The translations under genes and the position numbers were made by a program. Shown piece after piece: positions 1-22,132 of a DNA stretch of 64,000 nucleotides. Source of the stretch: Sphingorhabdus sp. SMR4y (GTDB taxonomy: Bacteria > Pseudomonadota > Alphaproteobacteria > Sphingomonadales > Sphingomonadaceae); assembly GCF_002218195.1 (NCBI RefSeq), contig NZ_CP022336.1:2413001-2477000 (forward strand), in the 5' to 3' direction. Position 1 is the stretch's first letter. Each line of letters opens with the position of its first letter. The notes under the pieces are model-generated. The model saw nothing but the letters and a program-made list of their open reading frames with translations. It searched no databases and was not told the origin of the DNA.

Positions 1-1
1 A

Positions 2-3033: not shown

Positions 3034-3153
3034 TGCCTAAAAATCTCCCAAACAGATACTAAATTGCGCAGCCGTGACTTATCGGCTCACTCCTTCCAGC
3101 CCGGATTTAGTGCGTCATCAGCCACAAATTGGATGAGTTCGCGAATCTCCCGT

Positions 3154-3189: not shown

Positions 3190-3273
3190 ATTGGGCCAAC
3201 TCTCCGCATTCTACCAGCCTTGACAACCGAGCCTTTTGGTCTAGAGCCTCACCCTGTGAGAAAAATCATCGAG

Positions 3274-4038: not shown

Positions 4039-4081
4039 GGTCGCCGCGCTGGCAAATGGCCCCTGCGCCTGACCAATGCAC

Positions 4082-4873: not shown

Positions 4874-4963
4874 TTCTCACCCTCTGATTTTTGGTTCATG
4901 CCCATTTTGGAAAACCATACTCTTACGTATTGACATTTCTGCGAAGGTCTCGCAACAGATATT

Positions 4964-4977
4964 TCACAAGAATGTGA
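4964..4977. promoter_or_regulatory. Inverted repeat in divergent promoter region
   Basis: TCACA-AGAA-TGTGA is a perfect 5-bp-arm palindrome in the 129-nt divergent gap between the dihydrodiol dehydrogenase and the hydrolase. A TTGACA hexamer lies just upstream at about 4929. The half-sites are in the opposite order to a CRP box, so it is not called CRP. It may be an operator for a local regulator. Confidence 0.3.
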
Positions 4978-5002
4978 CAAATTGCGTGGTGTGGAGAGAG
5001 AT

Positions 5003-5845: not shown

Positions 5846-5913
5846 ACGCCTAGCAAACTCGCAAGCGCGTTTCAATCCGCCCTCAACTCAACTTCCTCCT
5901 ACGATGGTACTTT

Positions 5914-7497: not shown

Positions 7498-7562
7498 GTT
7501 AGTTCCAAATAAAATAACGTAGAAACACACAGTCGAAATATTATTATACCTGGGAGGTAAAA

Positions 7563-9758
7563 ATGAAGAAATCATTGTTAACAACAGCAGCCATACTGCC
7601 TTTCCTGCTCTGTCCGGCTGCGGCCAATGCCCAGAGTGACACCTCGGATGAGGCCGACCAGGCGGGCGAGGCCCAGCCAAAGGCGGATGCGCAAGCTGAT
7701 GGCGCGGGCGGAATGATCATCGTCACCGCCACGCGCCGGGAAGAAAGCCTGCAGAAAGTCCCCGTGGCAGTGACCGCCGTGTCGACTGAGGTGCTGACGA
7801 CCTCGGGCGTCGAACAAGTCCGATCTCTCAACCAGGTCGTGCCAGGGTTCAACGGCGGCCGCAACCAGAACGTAATGCAGCCCAGCATTCGCGGTGTCGG
7901 TTCGAGCGGTACTTCGGTCGGCGATGAGTCAAACGTCGCCGTCTATGTGGACGGAGTTTACCAGGGCGATCCCTATTCGACACAGATCGACCTTGTCGAA
8001 ATCTCCCGCGTTGAGGTTCTTCGCGGGCCGCAGGGCACGGTGTTCGGCCGCAACGCCACTGGTGGTCTGGTCAACGTCGTGACCCCGGATCCTCAGTTCA
8101 CACCGCGCGCCCGTATCAAGGGAAGCTGGGGTCGCCTGCGCGAGGATGCGAACAATTTCGACATCCGTGCCTACGTTACCGGCGGCTTGACCGACACAAT
8201 CGCTGCCGATCTCGCCGTACTCTATCGCAATCAGGACGGATACGCGACGAACCTACTCAATGGCGGCGCTGTCGGCGATACCGAAATTGCGTCGATCCGG
8301 TCCAAGCTGCTGTTCCAGCCGAGCGACCAGGCCGAGTTCATTCTGACGGTCGCATATGTCGATACGCACGAAGAAATTGCGGCCACTGCCCAGCCGTTCG
8401 AGGGGAACTCGCTGGGCGCGCAGTTCGCCGGCGCGATCATTCCCGACGAACCTTGGGAAATCTCCAATTTCGCCTTCGGAACGGCTGGCCTGTCTGACTT
8501 CACCCGACTGGACATCGCGCTGAAGGGACAGCTCGATCTGGGCGGGGTCATTCTGGAATCGACCAGCTCTTACATGCGTACGCGCGTGCACCAGATCGCC
8601 GATTCCGATAGCACCAATATTCTTCTCGGCGAAACTAACATGCGGGTCAAACCCGATACGTTCACACAGGAACTGCGGCTTATTTCGGACAATGGTAGTC
8701 CCCTCAGCTGGACTGCTGGCGTCTATTATTACCAGCTGAAGGGTGAGCAGCCGCTTATCCTGATCAATCGCCGGGACGTCGCTACCCCGGTCACGCCGAT
8801 CACGATCGAGCCGGAAGTGGAGAATTCGTCAATCGCTGCCTTTGTCGAAGGCACCTATGATCTGACGCCGAGCCTCTCGGTAACGCTGGGCGGACGTTAC
8901 ACCACGGAGACGCGAAAGTTCTCGCAGCGTATCAACGGCAACCAACTGTTCACGGATGCGGAGGAGGATTTCGACAAATTCACTTACCGCGTGGCCGTCC
9001 AGTACGAAGCTTCGCCTGATCTGAACCTCTACGCCACCTATGGCACCGGGTTCAAAAGCGGCACCTTCAACACTTTCGGCACTTCGAACGTAGCGGTCGA
9101 GCCGGAAACGATCGAGGCGATCGAGTTTGGCATAAAATCCGATCCACTGCCGTGGCTGCGGGCGAACCTTGCAACCTTCTATTACACCTATGATAACTTG
9201 CAAGTGACCGCGCGGGCAGCCAATAATGCGTTCGTCCTGCAGAACGCGGCCAGCGCAGAGATCTACGGTGGAGAGCTCGAGCTTGCGGCAGAACCTATTG
9301 TCGGTTTGAATCTGCGTGCGGCCATCGCCTACACTCATGCCGAGTATGATGAATTTTTCAACGCGCAGGTATTCATTCCCCAAGCGGGCGGCGGAAACAT
9401 GGTTTCATCCGCCGATGCCTCTGGCAATCAGCTGGTCCGCACCCCGGAGTTCACTCTGACACTGGGCGGACGTTACACATTCGATGCGTTCGATGGAGAA
9501 GCCTTCATCGGTGGCAACCTCTTCCATTCGAGTGCGGTATATTACGATTACCTCAACATCTTTAGCCAGGATTCTTATGAACTTCTGTCGGCAGAGATCG
9601 GTTGGACCAGCCCTGATGACGATCTTACTTTCCGCATCTTCTCGAAGAATCTCACCAACGCAGCGGTGGCCCAGCAAATCTCGCCTGGACCGCTCGCCGC
9701 CTACATCATCTACGAACGCCCACGTGAAGTAGGCGCAAGCTTAGAATTCAGGTTCTGA
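7563..9758 (+). CDS. TonB-dependent outer membrane receptor
   Basis: A 731-residue outer membrane beta-barrel. The first 24 residues are a signal peptide ending AAANA. The sphingomonad-type TonB box and plug start follow (IIVTATRREESL, about 56-67). LRGPQGTVFGRNATGG marks the plug, and the protein ends in a terminal Phe (EFRF) as barrel proteins do. GGGAGG about 5 nt before the ATG is a strong ribosome site. Its place inside the catabolic block suggests uptake of the hydrophobic substrate rather than a siderophore. A rho-independent terminator follows at 9814. Confidence 0.92.
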   Translation: MKKSLLTTAAILPFLLCPAAANAQSDTSDEADQAGEAQPKADAQADGAGGMIIVTATRREESLQKVPVAVTAVSTEVLTTSGVEQVRSLNQVVPGFNGGRNQNVMQPSIRGVGSSGTSVGDESNVAVYVDGVYQGDPYSTQIDLVEISRVEVLRGPQGTVFGRNATGGLVNVVTPDPQFTPRARIKGSWGRLREDANNFDIRAYVTGGLTDTIAADLAVLYRNQDGYATNLLNGGAVGDTEIASIRSKLLFQPSDQAEFILTVAYVDTHEEIAATAQPFEGNSLGAQFAGAIIPDEPWEISNFAFGTAGLSDFTRLDIALKGQLDLGGVILESTSSYMRTRVHQIADSDSTNILLGETNMRVKPDTFTQELRLISDNGSPLSWTAGVYYYQLKGEQPLILINRRDVATPVTPITIEPEVENSSIAAFVEGTYDLTPSLSVTLGGRYTTETRKFSQRINGNQLFTDAEEDFDKFTYRVAVQYEASPDLNLYATYGTGFKSGTFNTFGTSNVAVEPETIEAIEFGIKSDPLPWLRANLATFYYTYDNLQVTARAANNAFVLQNAASAEIYGGELELAAEPIVGLNLRAAIAYTHAEYDEFFNAQVFIPQAGGGNMVSSADASGNQLVRTPEFTLTLGGRYTFDAFDGEAFIGGNLFHSSAVYYDYLNIFSQDSYELLSAEIGWTSPDDDLTFRIFSKNLTNAAVAQQISPGPLAAYIIYERPREVGASLEFRF

Positions 9759-9813
9759 TCTAACGTTCGACGCAGGGCACGCGGATTAACAGGCCCTGTG
9801 TTGCCATGCCTTA

Positions 9814-9855
9814 GGGGCCTCGTACTCTTGCGGGTAGCGAGGTCCCCAAATTTTT
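9814..9855 (+). terminator. Rho-independent terminator after TonB receptor
   Basis: GGGGCCTCG (9814-9822) pairs with CGAGGTCCCC (9838-9847) with one bulged base. AAATTTTT follows. It sits 56 nt after the receptor stop and before the convergent tetR gene. Confidence 0.65.
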
Positions 9856-9925
9856 GGCGCTGCCGCATCGCAGCAATCGACACGCGGTGCCCCCGAATAA
9901 GACTCTGGCCGGGTTCGGCGAAGAT

Positions 9926-10588
9926 TCAACCCGTAGTCGAAGCAGTCACTTCGGTTGTACCGGTGGTATTGTTGGAATCCTTTTTGGGCAGTTCCTGCCC
10001 TACTGTTGCCGGAAGAAATACTGCAAGGAATGCCTTGGTATCTTGGGCATGGTTCCGCTTCGACTGAGAGCGTGACAGGATGTTCAGGCCGATGATTTGA
10101 GCCAGCGCCATTGTCGCCGTCTGGAGCGCCTGATGCTCGCTCTTTCCCAGTTCGATATAGGCATCGGCAATCAAGCTGATCCGGTCCTGATCGACGCGCC
10201 GGGTGGTTTCGGCAGCAATCTCGGAAACCCGCGCCCATTCTTGCAGCGCCCGTTCGACTGAGCCGCCCGGAACATCGTGCCGTCGGTTCAGGGCAAGGGT
10301 GAAAAAATATCGCAGACGATCTAACGGATCGTCGAAGTCACGTTTGCCCGCAAGGCCAATGGCCTTGGTCGCCGAAATATACCAATATGACAGCGTCTCG
10401 TAGAGAAGCGTCTCTCTGTCTTGGAAATGCCAATAGAAGCTTCCTTTAGTTACATTCAGCTCCTTGGCTAATGTTTCTATCTGAATGCCGGCGACACCAA
10501 CTTCACCTATCTTGCTGAGCGTATGCTTTAACCAGATGTCCTTTGACAGCCTGTTCCGTTTTTTCGATCCGTTACTAGCTTCGGACAT
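9926..10588 (-). CDS. TetR/AcrR family transcriptional regulator
   Basis: A 220-residue regulator. The N-terminal HTH (about 28-58) reads GIQIETLAKELNV followed by TKGSFYWHFQDRETLL, the canonical TetR signature. The C-terminal ligand domain is family-variable and ends in a Ser/Thr-rich tail. It is convergent with the TonB receptor and divergent from the region ahead of the first Rieske gene. It could repress the receptor, itself or the Rieske operon. Ligand and target are unknown. Confidence 0.88.
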   Translation of the reverse strand: MSEASNGSKKRNRLSKDIWLKHTLSKIGEVGVAGIQIETLAKELNVTKGSFYWHFQDRETLLYETLSYWYISATKAIGLAGKRDFDDPLDRLRYFFTLALNRRHDVPGGSVERALQEWARVSEIAAETTRRVDQDRISLIADAYIELGKSEHQALQTATMALAQIIGLNILSRSQSKRNHAQDTKAFLAVFLPATVGQELPKKDSNNTTGTTEVTASTTG

Positions 10589-11283
10589 GGCATTCCCTAA
10601 TTTTACAATCCAGTTCGAAGGTTTCGTTTTTCGGACCGCTTACCGCTTTAATGGCGAGACGCTTGACATTGCAGATGTTGATGGCCGTATCTGCAGCATC
10701 AAGGCTGCTTTGACAATCCAGGTAATTATACCGCGGCAGTGAGGATTGGGTCAAGGTGCCTCCTGATAATCCGGCATTGATTATGCTGGCCGAACTTGTG
10801 GAATTCAGACTCTAAACGGATACTCGGATCGCGTCGCTCGGTATCAGCGAACCTCGACATATCACCGTTACAGCCTCCCGAGCTGAGGCACTCGATCTTG
10901 GTCGGCAGCTCAAGGATACCCTGCTTGCACTGAATGAGTTTACTCGGCCGAACATGCATGGTGGAGCCGATAACCCAAACCCAGACGAACTTCGTGCCCA
11001 AAGCAAAAAGCTCATTCGGATCGTCGGCAGTTACTAGCGGCTTCGTCTAAATCTGAATCTTGGGGAATGTTGAGCAGGTCATCGCGCATGTAGACGCTCA
11101 GCTTGCATGCCAGAATTGTGAACGAATACCCAGCTACTTTCCTGGGTGAGGAATGGCTTTATGCATTGTCAGCCCCTTATCGCTGGTCCTGAGGAAATGC
11201 TGGAGGACGGCGCCGATATGGATGACGATGGCGGTTACGACCCTTCTGATGATCCTTGGGGGGCGTGAGAGGGTCAGGCGTTT
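10589..11283. other. Intergenic region with decayed coding fragments
   Basis: This gap holds the tetR promoter side and no intact gene. In one plus frame, 10726-11037 reads like protein (LIMLAELVEFRL, then TDTRIASLGISEPRH and NPDELRAQSKKLIRIVGSY) but is interrupted by TAA at 10813-10815. A second short open stretch, 11161-11268, encodes an acidic tail (EDGADMDDDGGYDPSDDPWGA) before TGA. Neither has a recognisable family or a good ribosome site. They look like remnants of genes left by rearrangement. Confidence 0.4.
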
Positions 11284-11374
11284 TATTTATATCAATGTTA
11301 TATTTAATATTGACTCGGCTTTGCGGCACTCTATTAAATTGAAAGCGATAGGACGGAGTGGAGAAATAACGCTG
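11284..11374 (+). promoter_or_regulatory. Catabolic promoter-leader cassette, copy 1
   Basis: An AT-rich stretch carries the near-palindrome AATGTTA-TATT-TAATATT (11294-11311). It runs into a -35 TTGACT (11310-11315), a 16-nt spacer and a -10 TATTAA (11332-11337). From the -10 to the ATG at 11375 is 37 nt, including GGAG at 11360. Copies 2 and 3 (16282-16362 minus; 17465-17555 plus) have the same elements and exactly the same spacings. The palindrome overlapping the -35 suggests a repressor operator. Confidence 0.7.
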
Positions 11375-12598
11375 ATGAAACCCGCAACGATGCAACAGCT
11401 CTATGCCGATACTCAAGAGATGCTGAGCCTCCAAGAAACCGGCATCGTGCGGCAAGCGCGCCAAGTGGCAATGCTTGACGCCAGTCAATATACGGACGAG
11501 GCGCAGTTCGCCGCCGAACAAAAAGGGATCTTCCAACGCTTGCCCCTGATGCTGTCGGCGAGTTGCGAGTTGTCTGAGCCCGGAAGCTACAAGACGATGG
11601 ATATTGCAGGCGTCCCGGTCCTGCTCGTGCGTAGCAAGGACGGGGTGGCGCGCGCGTTCCTCAACAGTTGCACGCATCGCGCCAGTCCCGTCGCAAAAGG
11701 TTGTGGCAAGGCCGCACGCTTCACTTGCCCTTATCATGGCTGGACATTCGGGCGGGAAGGCAATCTTATCGGGATTGCCTCTCGCGAAAATTACGGCGAC
11801 ATAGATCCAGAGGACCACGGCCTGATCTGTTTTCCGGTGCATGAGCAGTCAGGGTTGATCTGGGCTATTCTGGATCCCGATGCCCCCGCAGATTTTTCAG
11901 CATTTCTGGGTAAATTTACGGAAATGCTTGGTGGTTTCGGATTTGAAAATTGGCATTTTGGTCAACGGACGACCCTTGAAGGTGCCAACTGGAAATTGGC
12001 CTTTGATGCCCATCTGGAATTCTACCATCTCCCGGTGCTTCATCGCGAGACATTCGGGACAGAGATAGGAAATGCTGCGCAATATCAATATCATGGACCC
12101 CATTTTCGTTTACGCCATGTCGGAAAACGGAGCGAGTCGTCGGTTCCCGATAGTCTTTCTGTCCTTGAGGGCCTGTCTCGCGAAGACTGGCCGATGGAGC
12201 CTCTTTTTTCGGGAGAATGGATTCTCTTTCCCAACGTCTCGATCAACAGTTTTTTCCAGGGCGGCCGGGGCGTGATTATTTCACAGATTTTTCCAGGAAA
12301 TACAGTCGGCGAATCTGTCACGATCCAGACCTATCTCCACGAAAATCCCCAGAATGATAAGGATCGGACCGCTGGGGCCGAGCTGACGGCATTCATCGCG
12401 CATGTTGTTAGAGACGAAGACTTGCCGATGTCGAGGGATCAGCAACATGTCCTGTCGTCCGGCCTTCAAAAATCAGTGCAATTCGGGTGCAATGAAGGCG
12501 GCCTGCAGCATTTTCATCGCTGGGTGAAACATTGTTTAAGCATGGACGAGAAGCAACCCCTTGCAGACCTCATGGCTGCGGCTCCTGATATTCCATAA
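11375..12598 (+). CDS. Rieske aromatic ring-hydroxylating oxygenase, alpha subunit
   Basis: A 407-residue oxygenase. The Rieske [2Fe-2S] site is Cys99-x-His101 (CTHRASPV) and Cys118-x2-His121 (CPYHGWTF). The catalytic domain has NWKLAFDAHLEFYHLPVLH with iron ligands His218 and His223. An upstream in-frame ATG at 11153 lies before the promoter; ATG 11375 is correct, with GGAG 11 nt upstream. The first residues (MKPATM, then QQLYADT) are homologous to the leader peptide of copy 3. The enzyme would hydroxylate an aromatic or alicyclic ring. No beta subunit, ferredoxin or reductase gene is adjacent. It is followed 58 nt later by the FadH-like reductase. Confidence 0.9.
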   Translation: MKPATMQQLYADTQEMLSLQETGIVRQARQVAMLDASQYTDEAQFAAEQKGIFQRLPLMLSASCELSEPGSYKTMDIAGVPVLLVRSKDGVARAFLNSCTHRASPVAKGCGKAARFTCPYHGWTFGREGNLIGIASRENYGDIDPEDHGLICFPVHEQSGLIWAILDPDAPADFSAFLGKFTEMLGGFGFENWHFGQRTTLEGANWKLAFDAHLEFYHLPVLHRETFGTEIGNAAQYQYHGPHFRLRHVGKRSESSVPDSLSVLEGLSREDWPMEPLFSGEWILFPNVSINSFFQGGRGVIISQIFPGNTVGESVTIQTYLHENPQNDKDRTAGAELTAFIAHVVRDEDLPMSRDQQHVLSSGLQKSVQFGCNEGGLQHFHRWVKHCLSMDEKQPLADLMAAAPDIP

Positions 12599-12656
12599 AT
12601 CCGCTCTACCGATAATTGGCGGCCTGTTTGCAGCAGGTCATTCAGGAGAAATTGCC

Positions 12657-14618
12657 ATGGCACTTTATGATAATCTGTTCGAGCCGCTCGCTGTCGGTCC
12701 AGTAACGATACCCAATCGCATCGTCAGATCTGCCCATTCGACATTACTTTCGGGAGAACCTCTGATAGCCTATCATGAAGCGCGGGCGCGCGGCGGCGTC
12801 GGAATGTCCACGCTCGAAGCGACCAACGTGCTTGCACCCGAAGGAACCCGTGTTCCGCTGGGATCGGACGCCGTCCTGCAATTCTACGAAGAGATATCTG
12901 CAAGGATGCGCCCGCACGGGATGAAGCTTTTCCAGCAGATCTATAATCCCGGCGCTAGCGTATCACCCAACTTGCTTCCGTCTCTGGAAAGTCCGCCAAG
13001 TGTGGGAGAAATTCCCAACCCGCTCTACAACATCTCTCCGATGGCGATGACTCGCGGCGAAATTCAGGGAATGACTCAAGCATTCGCCGCTGCGGCTCGC
13101 CGTGTTCGGGATGGCGGGCTGGATGGCGTGGATATCCATGCCTCCTCCGGATACCTGATTCACGAGTTCCTTTCTCCTGCCCTTAATCACCGGGAGGATG
13201 AATATGGAGGCTCATTCGAAAACAGAATGCGTTTTCTCGAGGAAATCATCACCGCCATTCGTGCCGAGATTGGTCATGATATCGCGGTAGGGGTGCGGTT
13301 GCCGAACGAGGATTACACGCCCGGCGGCCTCACGCCCGAACTCAACGCAGCGATCGCCCAGGCGGTGGAAGATGAGGTCGACTATATATCGCTCCACATG
13401 AGCAGCTATTGGCGGTTCCATAAACTGATTGCTCCGGCTGATGATCCGTTGGGCACGGAGATGCCGTCCAATCGAACGATCACTTCGGTCATCAGGAAAC
13501 CACGGATGGTCGTCGGAAGGATCATGACGCTCGACCACGCCAGCGCAATCGTCCGCGAGGGCGAGGGCGATCTTGTATCGATGGTCCGGGCCTTGATCGC
13601 CGATCCCGAACTGGTCAACAAAGCGCGGCGTCTCGAGGAGTCGCGCATCCGGCCGTGTATCGGTACCAACATGGGTTGCGTCGGCCAGATCATGAGCCGC
13701 GGGGTTCTCAGTTGCGTGGTTAACCGGTCGGCGGCGCAGGAGGATACACAGCCATTTGAGCCCGACGATCAAGCGATTCTTCCAAAGAAAATTCTCGTTG
13801 TTGGCGGTGGTCCGGCTGGATTGGAAGCAGCCCGGACAGCGGCCTTGCGTGGTCATAGGGTCAGCCTGCATGAAGCCACCAAGTCGCTTGGCGGGCAACT
13901 GGTCTACGCGCGGCAAGCGCCGCACCGGGCCGATCTGGGGCTGATAATTGACTATTTGGTCAGCGAACTGAATAGTCTCGAGGTCGATATTTCCATCAAC
14001 TCGCTAGTTGATGAGGACGTCATCGCAGACATCGCTCCCGATGAAATCATTCTGGCAACGGGCAGCACGCCTCGCACGGACGGGTTTCAGGTGGCATTTC
14101 CGGTCGAGCCAGTTCCAGGACATCACTTGCCTCACGTTCATACGAGCTGGGACGTCTTTTCAAAGCATATCGTCTCCGGCTTCTCCGGCCAAGCCTTGGT
14201 TTTCGATGATATAGGGACTTTCGAGGCAATTTCGGTCGCCGACGTCTTGCTTGCCGCAGGTCTCAAAGTAACGATGGTTTCGCGCTTCGAGAAGATAGGC
14301 GAGGAAGTGCCGTTCCCACCCGTAACTGTTGGGGCGGCGCGCGAAAGGCTGATGGCGGGGAACTTTGATTTTATTGGCGGGCATTGCCTGCGCCGCATCG
14401 AACAGGGCGCCGTCCATATCGGGGTGCCGTTTACCGCACGCGAAAGGACGCTGGCGGCAGATAACGTTGTGATGGTGGGCTTCAAGCAGCCCAATCGCGA
14501 TCTTGTTGAGGCCATCCGGTCGATGGATCGGACGGTCCATCTGATTGGCGACGCATTGGGGCGCAACGACCTGATGAGCGCTATACATGGCGGTGCTGAT
14601 ATCGGCAGATCAATCTGA
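12657..14618 (+). CDS. Old Yellow Enzyme / 2,4-dienoyl-CoA reductase-like flavoprotein
   Basis: A 653-residue protein with the FadH architecture. An N-terminal FMN TIM barrel (about 1-330; NHREDEYGGSFENRMRF is a family signature) leads to an iron-sulfur linker, then an FAD/NAD(P) domain starting VVGGGPAGLEAA (about 380). AGGAGA lies 8 nt before ATG 12657. The linker has Cys334, Cys341 and Cys353 spaced as in FadH, but the second cluster ligand is Thr337 (CIGT instead of CIGC). The enzyme probably reduces a C=C bond conjugated to a carbonyl. Loss of one ligand may mean an altered or absent [4Fe-4S] cluster. Confidence 0.85.
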   Translation: MALYDNLFEPLAVGPVTIPNRIVRSAHSTLLSGEPLIAYHEARARGGVGMSTLEATNVLAPEGTRVPLGSDAVLQFYEEISARMRPHGMKLFQQIYNPGASVSPNLLPSLESPPSVGEIPNPLYNISPMAMTRGEIQGMTQAFAAAARRVRDGGLDGVDIHASSGYLIHEFLSPALNHREDEYGGSFENRMRFLEEIITAIRAEIGHDIAVGVRLPNEDYTPGGLTPELNAAIAQAVEDEVDYISLHMSSYWRFHKLIAPADDPLGTEMPSNRTITSVIRKPRMVVGRIMTLDHASAIVREGEGDLVSMVRALIADPELVNKARRLEESRIRPCIGTNMGCVGQIMSRGVLSCVVNRSAAQEDTQPFEPDDQAILPKKILVVGGGPAGLEAARTAALRGHRVSLHEATKSLGGQLVYARQAPHRADLGLIIDYLVSELNSLEVDISINSLVDEDVIADIAPDEIILATGSTPRTDGFQVAFPVEPVPGHHLPHVHTSWDVFSKHIVSGFSGQALVFDDIGTFEAISVADVLLAAGLKVTMVSRFEKIGEEVPFPPVTVGAARERLMAGNFDFIGGHCLRRIEQGAVHIGVPFTARERTLAADNVVMVGFKQPNRDLVEAIRSMDRTVHLIGDALGRNDLMSAIHGGADIGRSI

Positions 14619-14941
14619 GCGTTCATACGTTGCCGGACCCTTGAACCCAGATACCAACGCGAACCTGCGTTGGTGCGATACCGGCATTGTTGCACAATCG
14701 TTCCGTACGGCCGCCGCTTGCGGCAGGGAATATATCCATTGCCAGACCCAAATGGGTCAATCGTCACCTCCAGTTTGTGGGTAACAAAGCGACCGGCTTC
14801 GAAATCCGCATTCGCTCTTTCAGGCGGGCTTCATTCAGATCAAATAGTCTGACCAGCCAACCCCCCGGGGCTGCAAAATATCGGTCCGTTTCAAGCCTCA
14901 TTCTACCGCCCTTCCGGTAAGAAAGATCGCCTTCCTGTCCC
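14619..14941. other. Convergent intergenic region with hairpin
   Basis: This lies between the convergent flavoprotein and second Rieske gene. ACCAACGC (14653-14660) and GCGTTGGT (14667-14674) form a perfect 8-bp stem with a 6-nt loop. No T-run follows, so a standard terminator is not certain. No coding signal is convincing in the rest. Confidence 0.4.
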
Positions 14942-16237
14942 TCATCCTGCGGCTTCCAACTGTTCCATCTCGGCGACGCGCGGGTCGTTCGGATAGACCC
15001 ACTCCTCGCCGATCACTTGCTCGACGGCCAGACATTCCGGTACCCGGTTCAGGCCGATCATCTTGTCGCAATTCTGGTGGAAGCTGTAGATGCGCGCTTC
15101 CTGATAGCTCAGCGGGACGCTCTTGAAGCCGTCGCTTTCCATGGATTTCTGGATCATCTCGCCAAATTGCGTATCCTCGAGAATGATCGGTGACATGTCG
15201 CGGCCATTGGGCTTGCTCTCGTTTGGCACGGTCCACAGATCGGGCGCCGGTCCGTCGCCCCAGTCCATCGCCATCGTCACCAGTTCCAGCCGGGTGGTGT
15301 TGAGCGAGGTTGGCCAGAAGATCAGCGGCGGGACGAAATAATTGCTCAGCGGTGACACCCAATTGGGGAACATCGTGTAGCTTTGCGTGCAGGTCCGGCC
15401 GAATTCGCCAACGCCTTCGATTTCCTGCCAGTTGGGCGGGCTGTCGATCGCACGGACATGCTCACGATTGGTTTGTTGGGGAGCGGGGGCCAGCATCCGG
15501 GCATGGCCGTTGGGATAGAGGGTGTTCACATTGCGCTTGCTGTCGACCAGCGGCGAAACGGTATCGGGATGGATGAAGGGGACATGATAGACCTCCATAT
15601 TGGCCTCCATCGCCACCTTCCAGTTGCAATTCAGGTCAAACGAATAGCGCGCCGCCAGTCTGATCTTGTCGAAGCGGAATTCCTTCCACTCATCCCAGAC
15701 CGGGCCCAGCCATTGCTTGAGCGGCATCGCATCTGCATCGAAATTCACGAAGATCAGATTGCCCAGCATCTCGCATTTGACCGGAATCAGGCTGCGGCAG
15801 GACATGTCGAACTCGGGTCCGAAATCCTGCTTTTCCGGAACACCGACCAAAGTGCCATCGGTCTTGTAAGTCCAGTTATGATAGCCGCACATAAGCCGCG
15901 GCGACTTGCCTTTTTCCTCGGTCACGACCGGCGCGCCGCGATGACGGCAGGTATTGTAAAAGGCGCGGACTTCACCATCCATGCCGTGCACGATGATGAT
16001 CGGGTCGCCGACCTGCTCCCATTTCATGAAGCAGCCCGGTTCCGGCACTTCGTCGATATGAGCAGCGAACAGCCAGGTCTTCTTCCACAGATATTGCTGT
16101 TCGAGGTCGTAATATTCCTGGCTGGTATAGCGGCCGGCCGGCAGGTCAGGGAGATGGGGAAAGCCTTGGGGCGGGGCCGCGCGAGACGCTTCCCACTCCA
16201 TCAGCCGCTTCATTTGATCGATATAGGCAGGATCCAT
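14942..16237 (-). CDS. Rieske ring-hydroxylating oxygenase, alpha subunit
   Basis: A 431-residue oxygenase. Rieske ligands are Cys97/His99 (CRHRGAPV) and Cys117/His120 (CGYHNWTY). The mononuclear iron motif NWKVAMEANMEVYHVPFIH has ligands His218 and His223. The frame is open to an ATG at 16303, but ATG 16237 starts at the family-like N-terminus. Its A is shared with the TGA of a 14-codon upstream ORF (TGATG). It is only distantly similar to the first Rieske protein, so the two probably act at different steps. It is divergent from a tetR gene, and its promoter is copy 2 of the shared cassette. Confidence 0.88.
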   Translation of the reverse strand: MDPAYIDQMKRLMEWEASRAAPPQGFPHLPDLPAGRYTSQEYYDLEQQYLWKKTWLFAAHIDEVPEPGCFMKWEQVGDPIIIVHGMDGEVRAFYNTCRHRGAPVVTEEKGKSPRLMCGYHNWTYKTDGTLVGVPEKQDFGPEFDMSCRSLIPVKCEMLGNLIFVNFDADAMPLKQWLGPVWDEWKEFRFDKIRLAARYSFDLNCNWKVAMEANMEVYHVPFIHPDTVSPLVDSKRNVNTLYPNGHARMLAPAPQQTNREHVRAIDSPPNWQEIEGVGEFGRTCTQSYTMFPNWVSPLSNYFVPPLIFWPTSLNTTRLELVTMAMDWGDGPAPDLWTVPNESKPNGRDMSPIILEDTQFGEMIQKSMESDGFKSVPLSYQEARIYSFHQNCDKMIGLNRVPECLAVEQVIGEEWVYPNDPRVAEMEQLEAAG

Positions 16238-16281
16238 CACCACGCCCCCGATCCTTCGGTCAGCATTGCTGCGACTGACAT
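16237..16281 (-). CDS. Leader ORF, 14 codons, coupled to Rieske gene
   Basis: ATG 16281 is preceded by AGGAG with 8 nt spacing and encodes MSVAAMLTEGSGAW. The TGA overlaps the ATG of the Rieske gene as TGATG. The ATG lies 37 nt after the -10, the same place as the Rieske start in copy 1 and the leader start in copy 3. All three have a second Met at codon 6. Translation is probable from the ribosome site. A function beyond coupling the next gene is not evident. Confidence 0.5.
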   Translation of the reverse strand: MSVAAMLTEGSGAW

Positions 16282-16362
16282 CAACGTTTCTCCTCGCCCT
16301 CATTCTATTCCGTTCAAATTGATACAGTGCGTGAAGATTGAGTCAATATTAAATATAACATT
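16282..16362 (-). promoter_or_regulatory. Catabolic promoter-leader cassette, copy 2
   Basis: Reading the minus strand, the element AATGTTA-TATT-TAATATT (16362-16345) leads to -35 TTGACT (16346-16341), a 16-nt spacer, -10 TATCAA (16324-16319) and 37 nt to ATG 16281. It drives the second Rieske gene and faces away from tetR at 16562. A CAATATTG palindrome inside the first codons of that tetR echoes part of the motif. Confidence 0.7.
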
Positions 16363-16561
16363 GTTATTTATAAACTGCGGCCTCAGCATCGGCTGGTTGT
16401 TTTGCGTGAAGATGGCAGTTTGCTGCTTGTCGGCCGATCTCGCAATCCTGCCTTGTAATACCAGCCCGGACACCAATCAGAGGCAATCGCGTCCGACAAA
16501 ATTTGCGCGATTGTCATGACCTTGCTGATCGAATAGACCCCAACTTGTCCAAAACTGAGAG

Positions 16562-17161
16562 ATGGTATCAATATTGCCGCGCATAGTAGATCATGATGAG
16601 CGCCGCCGACAAGTCGTCGGGATCGCCAGAAATATATTGTTAGAATATGGGCTGGAAAAACTTACTGTCCGGCGAATTGCAGAGTCCGCGAATCTGAGTA
16701 CAGCCATAATCTCGCATTATTTTCGGGATAAGCGAGAACTCATGCTGTTCATATTTCTGGATACTCTGGAAATCGCCGAAAGCAGGTTCGCCCAGGCCGT
16801 TGAAGCTGATCTATCGACGACGGCCTGCTTGCAGACATTGCTACCCACCGATCAAGAAAGCCGAAATAACTGGAAAGTCTGGATTGCATTTTGGAATATG
16901 ACGCTGACCGATCGGGAGTTTCGACAACAGCAGGTGGCTAGGACCGAGAACACTCTCCGAATGATACGCGGCTTACTCGATCGCAATGCACACCCCCGGT
17001 CGACTGATGAAAATGAAAAGGACGTAGAGGAACGAAGGATATTCGCCGTGCTTGTTGGAATAGCAATCCAGGCCATTCACGATCCTGAAAGCTGGCCTGT
17101 CGAGCAACAGAGCCGCGTGCTGGAAAGTGAATTTGGCCGATTTTCGGACATGACGCGCTAG
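16562..17161 (+). CDS. TetR family regulator (BetI-like)
   Basis: A 199-residue regulator with an HTH near 33-62 (LTVRRIAESANLSTAIISHY then FRDKRELM). Its C-terminal domain has the NNWKVWIAFWNMTLTDREFR segment seen in BetI/TetR_C_6 type repressors. It is divergent from the second Rieske gene and its cassette promoter, and about 400 nt before copy 3. It is therefore the best candidate to bind the three shared operators. Its AT content is higher than that of neighbouring enzymes. Ligand unknown; direct binding is an inference from position. Confidence 0.85.
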   Translation: MVSILPRIVDHDERRRQVVGIARNILLEYGLEKLTVRRIAESANLSTAIISHYFRDKRELMLFIFLDTLEIAESRFAQAVEADLSTTACLQTLLPTDQESRNNWKVWIAFWNMTLTDREFRQQQVARTENTLRMIRGLLDRNAHPRSTDENEKDVEERRIFAVLVGIAIQAIHDPESWPVEQQSRVLESEFGRFSDMTR

Positions 17162-17464
17162 CTGATTATTAGCGGGAGCGGCCGGAGATTGCCTTACAGC
17201 TGCAAACTTTCCGCTCGCTGCCAGAGGCGGCTCGTTTACCCATCATCGATGGTCATATGCTGGAGCGAATGCCAGATATGAACAATATCGTCCCAGTCAA
17301 GCATCCGCTCTTGCCGACACTGCGGCAAACTCTCGCAATCCCAATGATACTCGTTCCAATATCGTGCTCGTGCGCAGTGGTTGCACGCCCATCTCGCAGT
17401 TAAAGCAGCAGCGGCCCGTCTTCGTCTAGTCGGCGACGGATTGTGCCATCCGTTATCGATGATT
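17162..17464. other. Intergenic region, no gene recognised
   Basis: Between the tetR stop and the third promoter cassette. Short open stretches occur but none has a ribosome site or family-like sequence. It may contain decayed coding sequence. Confidence 0.35.
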
Positions 17465-17555
17465 TATTTATATCATTGTTATATTAAATATTGACACGGC
17501 ATCTGCGGCCGATACTAAATCAAACGCAACAAGACGGAGAGGACGAGAAGCGCGG
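17465..17555 (+). promoter_or_regulatory. Catabolic promoter-leader cassette, copy 3
   Basis: The AT-rich stretch (ATCATTGTTATATTAAATA) runs into -35 TTGACA (17491-17496), a 16-nt spacer and -10 TACTAA (17513-17518), with 37 nt to ATG 17556. The downstream untranslated segment also aligns with copy 1 (GACGGAG then GGA/GAG stretches). The palindrome is less perfect than in copies 1 and 2. Confidence 0.7.
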
Positions 17556-17648
17556 ATGGAATCCCAAATAATGAAGCAACTGTGTTCCAACACCGCAAAA
17601 ATTCTGACCGCTCGCGGACGACAACGGTTACAAGCTGAAACGGAGTAA
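17556..17648 (+). CDS. Leader ORF, 30 codons, homologous to Rieske N-terminus
   Basis: It encodes 30 residues beginning MESQIMKQLCSNTAKIL. This aligns with MKPATMQQLYADTQEML at the start of the first Rieske oxygenase, matching at Met1, Met6, Gln8, Leu9, Thr13 and Leu17. Homology fades after about codon 17. The TAA at 17646-17648 overlaps an ATG (TAATG) and lies 5 nt before the next ATG at 17654. It appears to be the truncated 5' end of a Rieske gene left ahead of a new gene. It may now serve for translational coupling. Confidence 0.5.
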   Translation: MESQIMKQLCSNTAKILTARGRQRLQAETE

Positions 17649-17653
17649 TGGCC

Positions 17654-19129
17654 ATGACGAATCCAGATGAATCCGCCGAGATTCTTTCTTCTTCAACAAT
17701 CGAACACTGGGACGATACTGCTGACGTTCTGGTGATCGGGTATGGCATTGCCGGCGCCTGCGCGGCTCTGGAAGCTCGCCGGGCCGGATCAGATGTGCTG
17801 GTGATCGAGCGTGCATCGGGCGGCGGCGGAGCCAGCGCGCTTTCGGCAGGCATTTTCTATTTTGGCGGTGGCACAGACGTCCAGCGCGCCGCAGGTTACG
17901 AGGATACGCCTGACAATATGTTCGATTTCCTGATGGCCAGTACAGGAGCACCCGACGCGCATTTGGTGCGACGCTATTGCAACAATTCTACCGCACAGTT
18001 CGACTGGCTCGAGGCACAGGGCGTGCCTTTCAATCGCGGGCATTACAAGGGCAAGTCGGTAATCGCACCTACCGATGACTGTCTGGCTTCCACCGGTAAC
18101 GAGAAACTTTGGCCCTTTAAACAGGTCGCAACGCCCGTGCCGCGCGGGCACAAGGTCGCCAAAGAGGGTGACGGTGGCGGCGCATTGGCGATGAACGCAC
18201 TGACCACTGTATGCGAACGCGAAGGCGTGCGTGTGGAAGTGGACAGTCGCGTCAATGCTCTTGTTCGCGATGACTCCGGACGCATCGTCGGCGTCCGCGC
18301 GAAGCAGAGTGACGGGCAAAAATTCTTCCGCGCGACACGCGGGGTGGTGCTGGCCGCCGGGGCCTTCGGTTTGAACCGCGAAATGGTCAGCCATTATTCC
18401 CCGCAGTTTCCTGACAGTTGCGAGCCGCTGGGCATTCCGAACAACGACGGCGATGCCATTCGTCTCGGCCAAGCGGTTGGCGGCGAACTGCGTGCGATGG
18501 ACGGGATTATTGCCACCGCCAGTTTTTATCCGCCAGAGCAATTGATCAAGGCGATTCTTGTAAACAAACATGGCGAGCGGTTTATTGCCGAGGACAGCTA
18601 TCACGGACGCTCCGCCCAGGCGATTATGGAGCAACCGGGCACTGTGGCCTATCTCGTGATGGATTCAACGATCTTCGCATATCCCGAGGTTGACCACGCC
18701 AATCATCGTCTCATCGACGGTTGGGAAACGGTTGCAGAAATGGAAGCGGGGCTAAATATGCCCCAAGGTGCTCTCCAGTGCACCATGACAGAATATAACG
18801 AAGGTGCCGAACGCGGGGAAGATGCGCTTTTTCACAAAGACAAGGAATGGTTGCAACCGCTCAACCAGGGACCTTATGCCGCTTTCGAAGTATCCTATAG
18901 CAATTCCTGCTATTACTACATCACCTTGGGCGGTTTGAAGGTTTCTGCGGATTCCGAAGTGCTCGATATCAACGGCAACGCGATAGCCGGGTTGTTCGCG
19001 GCGGGCGCATGCGCTTCCACGATCGCTCAGGATGGTCCTGGCTACGCCAGCGGCCTGATGCTGGGACCGGCTTCATATTTCGGCCGGATCGCAGGAGAAA
19101 ATGCGGCACATGCCACGATTGCGACCTGA
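17654..19129 (+). CDS. FAD-dependent oxidoreductase (fumarate reductase / KstD-like)
   Basis: A flavoprotein of about 491 residues. The dinucleotide motif VIGYGIAGACAALEARRAG is near the N-terminus, ALSAGIFYFGGG follows, and the closing FAD segment is GLFAAGACASTIAQDGPGY. ATG 17654 has GGAG 8 nt upstream; the in-frame ATG 17648 overlaps the leader stop and is the alternative. The family includes 3-ketosteroid dehydrogenases and fumarate or urocanate reductases. It lacks the C-terminal YPGAG form seen in the next gene. A desaturation or reduction in the ring-degradation route is likely, with substrate unknown. Confidence 0.8.
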   Translation: MTNPDESAEILSSSTIEHWDDTADVLVIGYGIAGACAALEARRAGSDVLVIERASGGGGASALSAGIFYFGGGTDVQRAAGYEDTPDNMFDFLMASTGAPDAHLVRRYCNNSTAQFDWLEAQGVPFNRGHYKGKSVIAPTDDCLASTGNEKLWPFKQVATPVPRGHKVAKEGDGGGALAMNALTTVCEREGVRVEVDSRVNALVRDDSGRIVGVRAKQSDGQKFFRATRGVVLAAGAFGLNREMVSHYSPQFPDSCEPLGIPNNDGDAIRLGQAVGGELRAMDGIIATASFYPPEQLIKAILVNKHGERFIAEDSYHGRSAQAIMEQPGTVAYLVMDSTIFAYPEVDHANHRLIDGWETVAEMEAGLNMPQGALQCTMTEYNEGAERGEDALFHKDKEWLQPLNQGPYAAFEVSYSNSCYYYITLGGLKVSADSEVLDINGNAIAGLFAAGACASTIAQDGPGYASGLMLGPASYFGRIAGENAAHATIAT

Positions 19130-19254
19130 CATGTGCTGGCACACATTGTGCTGGTTGGCTGGCCTTTCCCGCACGATCTGAAAACTCGTAGACGGAGGAG
19201 CCCATGGCTAGATGTGATAGTTCGAAGTGACAAGAAAAGCTGCAAGACCAACTG

Positions 19255-19268
19255 TTACGATAACGTAA
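19255..19268. promoter_or_regulatory. Inverted repeat ahead of KstD-like gene
   Basis: TTACG-ATAA-CGTAA is a perfect 5-bp-arm palindrome in the 217-nt gap before the KstD-like gene, about 80 nt before its ATG. It differs from the shared cassette motif, so this gene may be under separate control. Confidence 0.35.
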
Positions 19269-19346
19269 TTATCTAAACCGGTCGCTGCGACATAAGATAT
19301 TTGGGCTGTCCATATCATCGGAATACTGGTTAATTAGGGAGCGAGC

Positions 19347-21032
19347 ATGGTGACGGATTTGACCAACCTGACGTGGGACCATGAAGTCGATCTTCTGGTG
19401 GTGGGCACCGGCGCGGCGGGCCTGACCACTGCAGTCGTGGGCGCGGTCGAGGGCCTGAAGGTCCTGGTGATCGAAAAGACCGAATTTTATGGCGGCACCA
19501 CGGCCCTCTCTGGCGGGGTCGCCTGGATTCCCAACAATCCGTTGATGAAAGCGGCCGGCATCCCGGACACGCCAGATGATGCTCTTACCTATCTGAAGCA
19601 CAATGTCGGCAACCGCGTTGCACCCGCCAAGCTCGAAGCGCTGGTCGAGCACGCACCGCAGATGGCCGAGTATATGCAGGCGAACAGCGCGGTGCAATTC
19701 CAGATGATGGAAGACTTCCCCGATTACCGGCCCGAAACGCCCGGCGGCAGCAACGGCGGCCGCTCCATCGACCCGAAGGTCTTTTCCGGCCGCAAGCTCG
19801 ATGACTATGCGCAGCTGCGCAAGCAAAATACCGAAATCCCCGGCGGCATTGTCGGTTCGGTCAAGGAACTGCGACGCCTGGCTTTTTTCCGGTCCAATCC
19901 GAAGGGGCTGCTGGCGGTCTGGAAGATGTTTCCGCGGAATCTGTGGAACAAGATCGCGTCCCGTCAGCATATGTCGAGTGGCCGCGCCCTGGCGGCCCGG
20001 TTGCGCTATTCGTTGCAGCAAAGGGACGTGCCCCTGTGGCTGAACACCGGCCTTGATGAATTGCTGGTCGAGGATGGCGCGGTGATCGGCGCGCGTGTCA
20101 CGCGGGAGGGCAAGCCGCTCAATATCCGCGCCCGCCGGGGCGTCATGATCGCCGCTGGCGGTTTCGAGCATAATGGAGCGATGCGCAAGGAATATTTCGG
20201 CGCAGACGTGGGCGAACAATGGGGATCGGGCGCATTTACATCGGGCGCGCCCGGCAATGTCGGCGACGGCATCAAAGCGGGTCTGGCAGCAGGCGCGGCG
20301 CTCGACCTGATGGATGACATGTGGTGGATGCCGTCTTCGGTGGAACCGGGGGCCAAAACGCCGACCATCCATGTGTTCGAGCGCGGCCTGCCGCACTTCC
20401 TGATCGTCAATGCCGGCGGCAAGCGCTTCGCCAACGAGGCCCGGCCCTATAATGAACTGGGCCGCGTCATCTATGAAGAAACCAGTCCGCCCGCCTTCAT
20501 GATATTCGACCAGCAATATCGCAACCGATACGCCATGGGCACAATGCTGCCCGGCATCACGCCGGAGCGCTTCATCGAAGCGGGCTATATCAAGCGCGCG
20601 GAGACGCTCGAAGCGCTGGCCGCTCAGGCGGGGATTGATCCGGCCGGCCTGAAGCAGACCGTCGAGCGGTTTAACATCATGGCCGCAGATGGGCGGGACG
20701 AGGATTTCCACAAGGGCGAGAGCGCCTTCGACCGCTATGCCGGCGATCCTGCGAACAAACCGAACCCCTGCCTTGGCCCTGTCATAAAGGCGCCCTTTTA
20801 CGCCATGGAAATCCAGGCGGGCGACCTGGGCACCAAGGGCGGTCTTTTGACCAACGAGCATGGGCAGGTGCTGCGTGAAGACAGCTCGGTGATACCAGGA
20901 CTATATGCAGCGGGGAACAGCTCGGCCTGTGTGGTCGGCAATTTCTATCCGGGCGCTGGCGGCACCATCGGCGCGGCGATGACCTATGGCTATATCGCCG
21001 CCAGGGATGCAGCGGGACAAGCGGATCGTTGA
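19347..21032 (+). CDS. 3-oxosteroid 1-dehydrogenase-like flavoprotein (KstD family)
   Basis: A 561-residue FAD enzyme. It has VVGTGAAGLTTAVVGAVEG near residues 19-37, TALSGGVAWIPNN, and a C-terminal GNFYPGAGGTIGAAMTYGY. Tyr534 and Gly538 of that last motif match the catalytic Tyr and Gly of KstD (Y-x3-G), which abstract the C2 proton and bind the C3 carbonyl. It would introduce a double bond next to a ring ketone. AGGGAGCG precedes the ATG. Codon choice looks more GC-rich than in the preceding genes. A true steroid substrate is plausible but not proven. Confidence 0.85.
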   Translation: MVTDLTNLTWDHEVDLLVVGTGAAGLTTAVVGAVEGLKVLVIEKTEFYGGTTALSGGVAWIPNNPLMKAAGIPDTPDDALTYLKHNVGNRVAPAKLEALVEHAPQMAEYMQANSAVQFQMMEDFPDYRPETPGGSNGGRSIDPKVFSGRKLDDYAQLRKQNTEIPGGIVGSVKELRRLAFFRSNPKGLLAVWKMFPRNLWNKIASRQHMSSGRALAARLRYSLQQRDVPLWLNTGLDELLVEDGAVIGARVTREGKPLNIRARRGVMIAAGGFEHNGAMRKEYFGADVGEQWGSGAFTSGAPGNVGDGIKAGLAAGAALDLMDDMWWMPSSVEPGAKTPTIHVFERGLPHFLIVNAGGKRFANEARPYNELGRVIYEETSPPAFMIFDQQYRNRYAMGTMLPGITPERFIEAGYIKRAETLEALAAQAGIDPAGLKQTVERFNIMAADGRDEDFHKGESAFDRYAGDPANKPNPCLGPVIKAPFYAMEIQAGDLGTKGGLLTNEHGQVLREDSSVIPGLYAAGNSSACVVGNFYPGAGGTIGAAMTYGYIAARDAAGQADR

Positions 21033-21371
21033 TGCTAGCTGCAGGCGGATCAGAACAATGCTGCGTGGCTGCGCTCTGCCATATCTTAATGTTCAAATGA
21101 ACTTCTTTGGATTTATTCTCGCCATGACTATCCGCCTGAGCCGAAGATCACCGACTGGGGCTGGTGTTAGGCGCAAAGCTGCCGAAGCCTTCAACCCGGC
21201 ACTAATAGTTTGCCATCACCTACATACCATTGGACTTTCCCAGCGCCGCAAGCATTGGTGTCGTCACTGAATCGCGGCCCAAATGTGCGGCCGCTGCCCT
21301 GACCGATGCCACCGGGAGGGCTATGGGTGGTGGGAGCAGCAAGGTGCTGCTCTGCCAAGGAGTACCACACC
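21033..21371. other. Gap between catabolic block and recombinase module
   Basis: No convincing gene. It includes the promoter side of the DUF3489-DUF2924-recombinase unit and probably one border of the mobile module. The last part has a GGAGCAGCAAGGTGCTGCTC hairpin-like stretch shortly before the ribosome site. Confidence 0.4.
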
Positions 21372-21701
21372 ATGACCGATACAATTGAGAACAAGTCCGC
21401 CCCAAAACTGTGGCGCGATATGGCGCGCAGGCTGACACCCGCAGCAGAAGTGAAAGCTTCGACCTCCGCCCCCGATCCCAAAGTCGAGCCTAAGCCAGTG
21501 AAGCTCTCCAGTAAGGCCAGTCTGGTTCTCGGCATGCTTGAGCGAGCAGACGGAGCCACAATCTCCCAACTCGTCGCTGCGACTGACTGGCTGCCGCACA
21601 CCACTCGGGCCGCGCTGACCGGCCTGAAAAAGAAGGGTCATCATGTTACCAGTACGAAAACAGGCGGTGAGGAGCGCGTTTACCGCGTGGTGGCGGGCTG
21701 A
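21372..21701 (+). CDS. DUF3489 domain protein
   Basis: A 109-residue protein. The variable N-terminal half precedes a winged-helix-like DUF3489 domain (KASLVLGMLERADGATISQL, TDWLPHTTRAALTGLKKKG). AAGGAG lies 9 nt before the ATG, so 21372 is preferred to the longer frame from 21306. Its stop overlaps the next start by one base. In many alphaproteobacteria this family sits just ahead of DUF2924 and a serine recombinase, as here, suggesting a regulator or accessory of the recombinase. Function unproven. Confidence 0.85.
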   Translation: MTDTIENKSAPKLWRDMARRLTPAAEVKASTSAPDPKVEPKPVKLSSKASLVLGMLERADGATISQLVAATDWLPHTTRAALTGLKKKGHHVTSTKTGGEERVYRVVAG

Positions 21702-22132
21702 TGGGACGACGCGCGTATGTCACGCTTGAGCGGCTTGCAGACATGCCGGCCGAAGAACTGAGAGCCGAGTGGGCGCGGCGTTATGCCGCTCCTGCTCCAA
21801 ATCTTCCGCCAGATCAATTGCGGCTCGGGATCGGCTACCGCCTGCAGGAGCAGAAGCTTGGGGGGCTTAGACGTTCCACCCGGACGCTCCTGCGCCGCAT
21901 GGCGGCACGCTCGCAGGACGGCACCCCTGAGGGCCCGCCGCCCCGCAAGCTGACACCGGGTACAAGGCTCGTTCGTGACTGGCACGGTGTTGGTCATAGT
22001 GTCACCGTGCTCGAGGATGGTTTCGAATATGATGGAAGGAACTGGAGGTCGCTTACAGCAATCGCCAAGGCCATCACCGGTTCGCACTGGAACGGACCGC
22101 GGTTCTTTGGCCTGTCCGGGCCCAAGACATGA
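21701..22132 (+). CDS. DUF2924 domain protein
   Basis: A basic 143-residue protein. The DUF2924 family is recognisable by GIGYRLQEQKLGGL, LTPGTRLVRDWHG, and YDGRNWRSLTAIAKAITGSHWNGPRFFGL. It overlaps the DUF3489 stop by one base and the recombinase start by 4 nt (ATGA), so all three are a tight operon. The basic character and context suggest a DNA-binding accessory, perhaps a directionality factor. This is inferred from neighbourhood only. Confidence 0.88.
   Translation: MGRRAYVTLERLADMPAEELRAEWARRYAAPAPNLPPDQLRLGIGYRLQEQKLGGLRRSTRTLLRRMAARSQDGTPEGPPPRKLTPGTRLVRDWHGVGHSVTVLEDGFEYDGRNWRSLTAIAKAITGSHWNGPRFFGLSGPKT

What the first reader, a model, noticed from the sequence alone, without database searches (positions are those of the whole stretch)
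11284..17556. Promoter-plus-leader cassette present three times in front of three different catabolic genes
Seen: at 11284-11375 (+), 16362-16281 (-) and 17465-17556 (+) the same module occurs. It is an AT-rich element built on ATGTTATATT, a TTGAC[T/A] -35, a 16-nt spacer, a TA-rich -10, and exactly 37 nt to an ATG with a second ATG at codon 6. The three genes served are a Rieske oxygenase, an unrelated Rieske oxygenase and a KstD-like flavoprotein. Identical spacings show common descent rather than chance. Inference: a duplicated regulatory cassette was recruited three times to build a regulon, probably under the TetR protein at 16562.
Basis: partly seen in the sequence, partly recalled or inferred. 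Interest (0 to 1): 0.8.

Follow-up and report, generated by a model that had tools for sequence, protein, structure and literature searches.

The report
Copied promoter cassette in steroid cluster
One stretch of regulatory DNA, probably the control switch of a steroid-degradation gene, appears to have been copied in front of two neighbouring genes so that a single repressor can probably control all three; it is a well-preserved example of an ordinary way in which bacteria build co-regulated gene sets.

Summary
The three modules are real. They align gaplessly over 114 nt (A 11282-11395 +, B 16374-16261 -, C 17463-17576 +), each with 65 nt from -35 to the conserved ATG, and they are the only copies found in the 3.48 Mb genome. 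Each carries a near-palindrome, TCAAnnTTAnnnnTAAnnTTGA, overlapping the -35. A sister genome (G013) has two copies, before orthologues of Rieske A and the ketosteroid dehydrogenase, with the 16562 TetR orthologue between them. Among 32 genus genomes only these two have strong cassette matches and a close orthologue of that TetR; the 9926 TetR does not track the cassette. In three more distant genomes a TetR homologue with another recognition helix accompanies a different palindrome at the same targets (all three in G550). Corrections: the ATG is the gene's own start only in A; in B and C it opens a 14- and a 30-codon out-of-frame ORF, probably scars of the Rieske A start. The two Rieske proteins are related, and gene B copies a gene widespread in the genus. 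Best reading: the Rieske A promoter-operator was copied twice to build a three-promoter TetR regulon. Binding, transcription starts and ligand are untested. New member of a known kind.

The parts
11282..11395 (+). Cassette A (promoter, operator, leader and first codons of Rieske A); probably the native copy
   Evidence: gapless alignment; unbroken homology into Rieske A with G013
16261..16374 (-). Cassette B, upstream of Rieske B
   Evidence: not found in G013
17463..17576 (+). Cassette C, upstream of the ketosteroid dehydrogenase gene
   Evidence: unbroken homology with G013 to 19109
11292..11313 (+). Proposed 22-bp operator of A (9 of 11 pairs)
16343..16364 (-). Proposed operator of B (8 of 11 pairs)
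17473..17494 (+). Proposed operator of C (7 of 11 pairs)
11310..11337 (+). -35 TTGACT, 16 nt, -10 TATTAA of A
16319..16346 (-). -35 TTGACT, 16 nt, -10 TATCAA of B
17491..17518 (+). -35 TTGACA, 16 nt, -10 TACTAA of C
16237..16281 (-). 14-codon leader ORF of B, ending TGATG at the Rieske B start; probable scar of the Rieske A start
17556..17648 (+). 30-codon leader ORF of C, resembling the Rieske A N-terminus, ending TAATG
11375..12598 (+). Rieske A (RiA), Rieske oxygenase alpha subunit
   Evidence: PF00355, PF00848
12657..14618 (+). Old-yellow-enzyme-type FMN/FAD reductase (OYE)
   Evidence: PF00724, PF07992
14942..16243 (-). Rieske B (RiB); start GTG 16243 or ATG 16237
   Evidence: 93% paralogue in own genome
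16562..17161 (+). TetR2, proposed repressor (start may be TTG 16574)
   Evidence: PF00440, PF13977
17648..19129 (+). Ketosteroid Delta4-(5alpha)-dehydrogenase-like flavoprotein (KstD45); conserved start 17654
   Evidence: G013 keeps only the 17654 ATG

Best explanation
The cassette is a repressible promoter: an AT-rich upstream stretch, a 22-bp dyad operator (TCAAnnTTAnnnnTAAnnTTGA) whose right end is part of the -35 box, a -10, and a 37-nt leader with the translation start of the Rieske gene RiA. Copy A is the native promoter of RiA. A copy carrying the RiA start region was fused in front of the ketosteroid dehydrogenase gene before the window's species and its sister G013 separated. A second copy was fused in front of an extra Rieske gene (RiB) in the window's lineage. 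The TetR protein at 16562, whose homologues are encoded directly behind RiA in other genomes, most likely binds the three operators as a dimer, blocks RNA polymerase at the -35, and releases when a pathway-derived (probably steroid) ligand is present. SHOWN by sequence: common descent of the copies, conserved spacing, dyad symmetry, linkage to this TetR in two species, and the same targets carrying another palindrome next to homologous TetRs in other genera. INFERRED: binding, repression, ligand, direction of copying.
For: Three places in the own genome; identity beyond shuffles in the whole and in the part after the -35. Of 32 genus genomes four match the cassette model at E<=0.1: G000 and G013 strongly (E 8e-16 or better for their best), G001 and G029 once each near 0.09. 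A close TetR2 orthologue (79-80%) and a close KstD45 orthologue (85%) occur in G000 and G013 only. In G013 TetR2 lies between the two cassette-bearing genes. Joint dyad score over five copies is 42 of 55, against column-shuffle mean 31.2, p=0.0058. In G007, G365 and G550 a TetR2 homologue (31-33%) directly follows an RiA homologue, and TATGCAACAnnTGTTGCATA-type palindromes lie upstream of RiA (G007), between RiA and RiB (G365, G550) and upstream of KstD45 (G550); with one beside a second G365 TetR this makes 5 sites in 192,382 bases of 11 loci against 0.02 expected. Operator type goes with recognition helix (STAIISHYF versus STKAVTHYF or STTAVTHYF).
Against: No binding or transcription data. 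Operator C is only 7 of 11 symmetric, and AT-rich sequence raises chance symmetry. The strict sigma-70 scan calls none of the three promoters. The TetR gene is in the same cluster, so its co-occurrence with the cassette is linkage, not independent evidence. G531 has a close relative of the G007-type TetR, with the same helix, but no RiA and no such palindrome in the 14.8 kb held; 7 of the 11 loci scanned lack that palindrome (one of them, L031, has the other type). In G013 the C copy has 63, not 65, nt from -35 to ATG. In the window the TetR gene is no longer directly behind RiA, and its own promoter is unknown. Single ancestry of the scars rests on 22 nt (p 0.0002 for A-B, 0.003 for A-C, 0.026 for B-C).
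Confidence: 0.77

Rival explanations
1. The 9926 TetR, or a regulator encoded elsewhere, binds the cassette; the 16562 TetR controls something else.
For: The 9926 gene is only about 0.7 kb from cassette A. No binding data exist for either protein.
Against: The 9926 TetR has 89% orthologues in G002 and G022, which gave no cassette match, and none at E<=1e-10 in G013, which has two cassettes (G013 is a 97% complete MAG, so the absence is soft). It lies in a block (1-10875) shared with G002 and G022 that ends before cassette A.
Confidence: 0.1
2. The cassette is a constitutive or activator-driven promoter copied for its strength; the dyad is an accident of AT-rich sequence.
For: Dyad p-value is moderate (0.0058); operator C pairs at 7 of 11; the -10 is weak, as often in activated promoters (recalled).
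Against: The first 33 nt are more conserved (25-32 of 33 in the ten pairs of five copies) than the rest (36-52 of 77-81). Homologous TetRs elsewhere come with another palindrome at the same targets.
Confidence: 0.12
3. The shared leader with its short ORFs is itself regulatory: a leader peptide or translational coupling device, with transcription control secondary.
For: The leader ORFs of B and C end at the next gene's start (TGATG, TAATG), and in G013 the C leader ORF overlaps the next start by 17 nt.
Against: ORF length and sequence are not kept (14, 30 and 37 codons); in A the ORF is the gene itself; no unusual folding (z 0.49, 0.62, 1.20) and no Rfam family.
Confidence: 0.12
4. The cassette is a small mobile promoter element that inserted three times.
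For: Sharp upstream edge at TTTAT in all five copies (sequences).
Against: All copies found lie within 6.3 kb of each other in the own genome and 2.2 kb in G013; none in 396 other family genomes under strict filters; no match in plasmids; the copies keep coding similarity to the Rieske A start.
Confidence: 0.04

Closest known systems
EdcR regulon of the estradiol (edc) cluster, Caenibius tardaugens (PMC8700777; passages seen)
   Same: TetR-type repressor inside a steroid-degradation cluster of a sphingomonad relative; a palindrome repeated in several promoters of the cluster; the paper suggests that a diverged regulator may recognise a different operator
   Different: The passages give PF16859 and the operator TnnCnnTACnAnTnGTAnnGnnA overlapping the -10. 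Here the regulator matches PF13977, the dyad is another one over the -35, the EdcR operator is not found, and the whole promoter-leader-start region is copied
BetI (choline-sensing TetR repressor)
   Same: TetR_N plus BetI-type C-terminal domain
   Different: 59.7 and 58.1 bits against curated cut-offs of 118 and 201.3. The best NCBIfam match of both Rieske proteins is glycine betaine monooxygenase GbcA, also far below its cut-off (110.6 and 152.5 against 670)
KstR and HsdR steroid TetR regulons (recalled; named in passages of PMC8700777)
   Same: TetR repressor with palindromic operators at steroid genes
   Different: Sequence relationship not tested here
Promoter capture by duplication (known process; seen only as search listings, e.g. 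PMC4395868)
   Same: A gene gains regulation by fusion to a copied promoter region
   Different: Here two fusions from one source inside one cluster, one of them older than the split from G013

Membership tests
TetR-family repressor regulon | Regulator with TetR_N helix-turn-helix and a ligand domain | tested here: met
   PF00440 E 1.4e-9, PF13977 E 8.8e-15
TetR-family repressor regulon | Dyad operator overlapping promoter elements at each target | tested here: met
   7-10 of 11 pairs in five copies, joint p=0.0058; moderate, region is AT-rich
TetR-family repressor regulon | Regulator linked to its operators across genomes | tested here: met
   G000, G013; with another palindrome in G007, G365, G550; G531 is an exception
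TetR-family repressor regulon | Binding and ligand-dependent release | not testable with these tools
   needs gel shift and reporter tests
EdcR regulon | Operator TnnCnnTACnAnTnGTAnnGnnA | tested here: not met
   0 matches in the window with up to 1 mismatch
EdcR regulon | C-terminal domain PF16859 | tested here: not met
   16562 matches only PF13977 and PF00440 at E<=0.001
BetI | Score above the curated cut-off | tested here: not met
   59.7 < 118 and 58.1 < 201.3
Mobile promoter element | Unlinked copies in the genome or in relatives | tested here: not met
   3 linked copies in the own genome; none in 396 other family genomes, strict filters
Riboswitch or structured leader | Known RNA family or unusually stable fold | tested here: not met
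   0 Rfam matches in 9700-21400 at gathering scores; z 0.49, 0.62, 1.20

The most novel reading that the evidence does not exclude
A regulon kept the same three target genes (Rieske A, Rieske B, ketosteroid dehydrogenase) across genera while its operator sequence and the TetR recognition helix changed together. In the window's lineage the membership was rebuilt by copying a whole promoter-operator-start unit, even onto a different Rieske B copy, and the unit brought a native two-cistron leader that couples translation of the new target.
Probability: 0.25. Interest if true: 0.55.

Novelty: new member of a known kind. Interest (0 to 1): 0.36.

Why it matters
It gives a clear natural record of how a catabolic regulon can be assembled: by copying one gene's whole control region, leaving short coding scars that point to the source. 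It also gives a testable TetR-operator pair for a probable steroid cluster, and a second palindrome type for homologous TetRs in other genera, useful for studying how repressor and operator change together and for steroid biosensors.

Tried and rejected
Tried without result: cassette A against 72,556 plasmid records (no match); cassette model against 397 family genomes under strict filters (own genome only; G013 does not appear in the rows shown and gave no match there, so it was evidently not in that sample); genome-contig scan with the TetR2 alignment (63 stretches, 1 relative, the G013 contig, titled Sphingorhabdus sp. MAG NTP38); RiA protein in plasmids (1006 records, all below 60% identity); Rfam; RNA folding; strict sigma-70 scan; EdcR operator. 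The 20-nt core pattern with up to 3 mismatches is not specific across the genus: 14 of 32 genomes match it, and the backward control matches in 6; only G000 and G013 have places with at most 1 mismatch. The nine paper searches listed no description of this cassette or cluster that I could recognise; only PMC-held papers were searched, and I saw passages, not whole texts, of PMC8540908, PMC12175502 and PMC8700777.

Rejected: chance similarity; mobile element; 9926 TetR as the regulator; the conserved ATGs as the gene starts in B and C.

Mistakes of mine: Rieske A was translated one base out of frame, so its blastp result there is void; the valid comparison is. In one search the script took an earlier ATG for the G013 C copy; one search gives the homologous one (63 nt from the -35, 37-codon ORF).

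Full report
THE OBSERVATION. The three segments align without a gap over 114 nt: A 11282-11395 (+), B 16374-16261 (-), C 17463-17576 (+). All three have TTGAC[T/A], 16 nt, TA[T/C][T/C]AA, 37 nt, ATG. The core pattern with up to 3 mismatches is found 3 times in the window against 0.00 in shuffles, and 3 times in the 3,479,724-base genome by blastn, by pattern and by a sequence model built from the three copies. Gapless identity is 80 (A-B), 80 (A-C) and 69 (B-C) of 114; the best of 5000 dinucleotide shuffles per pair reached 48, 48 and 54. After the -35 alone it is 50, 49 and 41 of 81 against shuffle maxima of 37, 36 and 35. The 22 nt around the start codon still show 14, 14 and 12 matches (p 0.0002, 0.003, 0.026). 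The copies therefore share descent.

Only in A is the conserved ATG the start of the gene. In B it opens MSVAAMLTEGSGAW, ending TGATG at the Rieske start; in C it opens a 30-codon ORF ending TAATG just before the flavoprotein start. In the four other RiB genes aligned, the start ATG-X-ATG lines up with GTG GTG ATG (16243-16235) in the window. The C leader ORF resembles the RiA N-terminus (MESQIMKQLCSNTAKIL against MKPATMQQLYADTQEML; my reading). The simplest reading is that the cassette is the 5' end of RiA, copied, and that the short ORFs are scars. Against pure scars, all three such ORFs (B, C and the 37-codon one of G013, which overlaps the next start by 17 nt) end at the next gene's start, which would suit translational coupling. 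The two Rieske proteins are related (31% over 196 aa). The flavoprotein is nearest, among solved structures, to 3-ketosteroid-Delta4-(5alpha)-dehydrogenase (4at0, E 1.1e-106).

THE OPERATOR. The first 33 nt are the most conserved part (25-32 of 33 in the ten pairs of five copies). They hold a dyad TCAAnnTTAnnnnTAAnnTTGA whose right end is the TTGA of the -35. Pairing is 9, 8 and 7 of 11 in A, B and C, and 10 and 8 in the two G013 copies; the joint score is 42 of 55 against column shuffles of mean 31.2 (p=0.0058). This is moderate support, because the region is AT-rich. With up to 2 mismatches the dyad pattern occurs 3 times in the window, at the three cassettes, against 0.06 expected (the pattern was drawn from these sites).

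THE SISTER GENOME. Of 32 genus genomes (own included) searched with the model at E<=0.1, four gave matches: the own genome (3), G013 (2; E 8.1e-16 and 3.2e-15), and G001 and G029 (1 each, near 0.09). G013's contig (17,528 bases; titled Sphingorhabdus sp. MAG NTP38) carries cassette-RiA, then TetR2, then cassette-KstD45, all on one strand. Homology with the window runs unbroken from the first base of cassette A through RiA (11282-12606, 77%) and from the first base of cassette C through KstD45 (17463-19109, 79%), so copy C predates the split. TetR2 is 80% identical; the next best match in the genus is 32% (G007). KstD45 at 85% is in G013 only; G021 has a 43% relative. The 9926 TetR has 89% orthologues in G002 and G022, which gave no cassette match, and none at E<=1e-10 in G013, a 97% complete MAG. 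Window 1-10875, with that TetR, is a block 93-94% identical to G002 and G022 that ends about 400 nt before cassette A.

OTHER GENERA. RiA homologues (49-53%) are directly followed by TetR2 homologues (31-33%) in G007 (same genus), G365 and G550, so this adjacency looks ancestral. In the window the stretch 12607-16477 (reductase, RiB, cassette B) lies between RiA and TetR2 and has no counterpart there in G013. In G550 the whole set KstD45, KstD, reductase, RiB, RiA, TetR2 is present, with RiB divergent from RiA. There a palindrome of the type TATGCAACAnnTGTTGCATA lies between RiB and RiA, and another upstream of KstD45, that is, at the same three targets. The type also lies upstream of RiA in G007, between RiA and RiB in G365, and between a second TetR2 homologue and a KstD homologue in G365. 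In total there are 5 sites with up to 3 mismatches in 11 loci (192,382 bases) against 0.02 expected; 4 of the 11 loci have them and 7 have none, among them L031 (G013), whose operator is of the first type. TetRs with this palindrome have the helix STKAVTHYF or STTAVTHYF; those of the window and G013 have STAIISHYF. G531 has the helix STKAVTHYF but no RiA and no site in the 14.8 kb held. Five other TetR relatives (L164, L165, L167, L168, L169; four genomes, G595 twice) have other helices and no such site.

ORIGIN OF GENE B. RiB has a 93% paralogue elsewhere in the own genome, and 88-93% matches in the nine other genus members listed; G013 has one at 86%, while G002 has none at E<=1e-60, so the gene is widespread but not universal in the genus. 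A protein tree of 22 rows places the window copy with genus copies (set of 4 rows, 97/92), away from the cluster RiB of G365 and G550 (a pair, 100/100); a DNA tree of 7 rows does not resolve its nearest relative. The window's RiB is thus a genus-type copy put under the cassette, whether by duplication or by transfer from a near species. G550 has both a core (74%) and a cluster (72%) copy.

MECHANISM. Most likely TetR2 dimers sit on the dyad and block the -35; a pathway ligand releases them, and RiA (with the reductase), RiB and KstD45 are expressed together. Shown: sequence anatomy, descent, linkage, parallel palindromes. Inferred: binding, repression, ligand. The steroid assignment rests on family matches of the two dehydrogenases, not on growth data. 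The best NCBIfam match of both Rieske proteins is glycine betaine monooxygenase GbcA, far below its cut-off, so it does not name their substrate.

KNOWN OR NEW. TetR repressors with repeated palindromes in steroid clusters are known, nearest EdcR (PMC8700777, passages); this one differs in domain and operator. Promoter copying is a known process. I file it as a new member of a known kind, with an unusually readable history.

Noticed in passing
window 1-10875: Block 93-94% identical to contigs of G002 and G022; homology stops sharply at 10873-10875, and the stretches of the relatives beyond it that I held match nothing in the window. Suggests an island or rearrangement boundary just before cassette A.
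   Followed up: partly
window 21306-23766: DUF3489 and DUF2924 genes followed by a large serine recombinase (Resolvase + Recombinase), right of the KstD gene at 19347-21032; may be a mobile module beside the cluster.
   Followed up: no
window 202-3033: HMGL/DmpG-type aldolase, acetaldehyde dehydrogenase and FAA-hydrolase genes, as in the lower part of a meta-cleavage pathway.
   Followed up: no
L163:903-946: The proposed KstD45 operator of G550 lies inside a long inverted repeat with 17-nt arms.
   Followed up: no
L166:8852-11156: G365 has a second TetR2 homologue divergent from a KstD homologue, with the TATGCAACA-type palindrome between them.
   Followed up: partly
window 16562-16576: TetR2 may start at TTG 16574: homologues align from that residue, and G013 lacks the upstream ATG.
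   Followed up: partly
G000:C1:1909079-1910362 (L128): 93% paralogue of RiB in the own genome, with relatives in most genus members looked at.
   Followed up: yes
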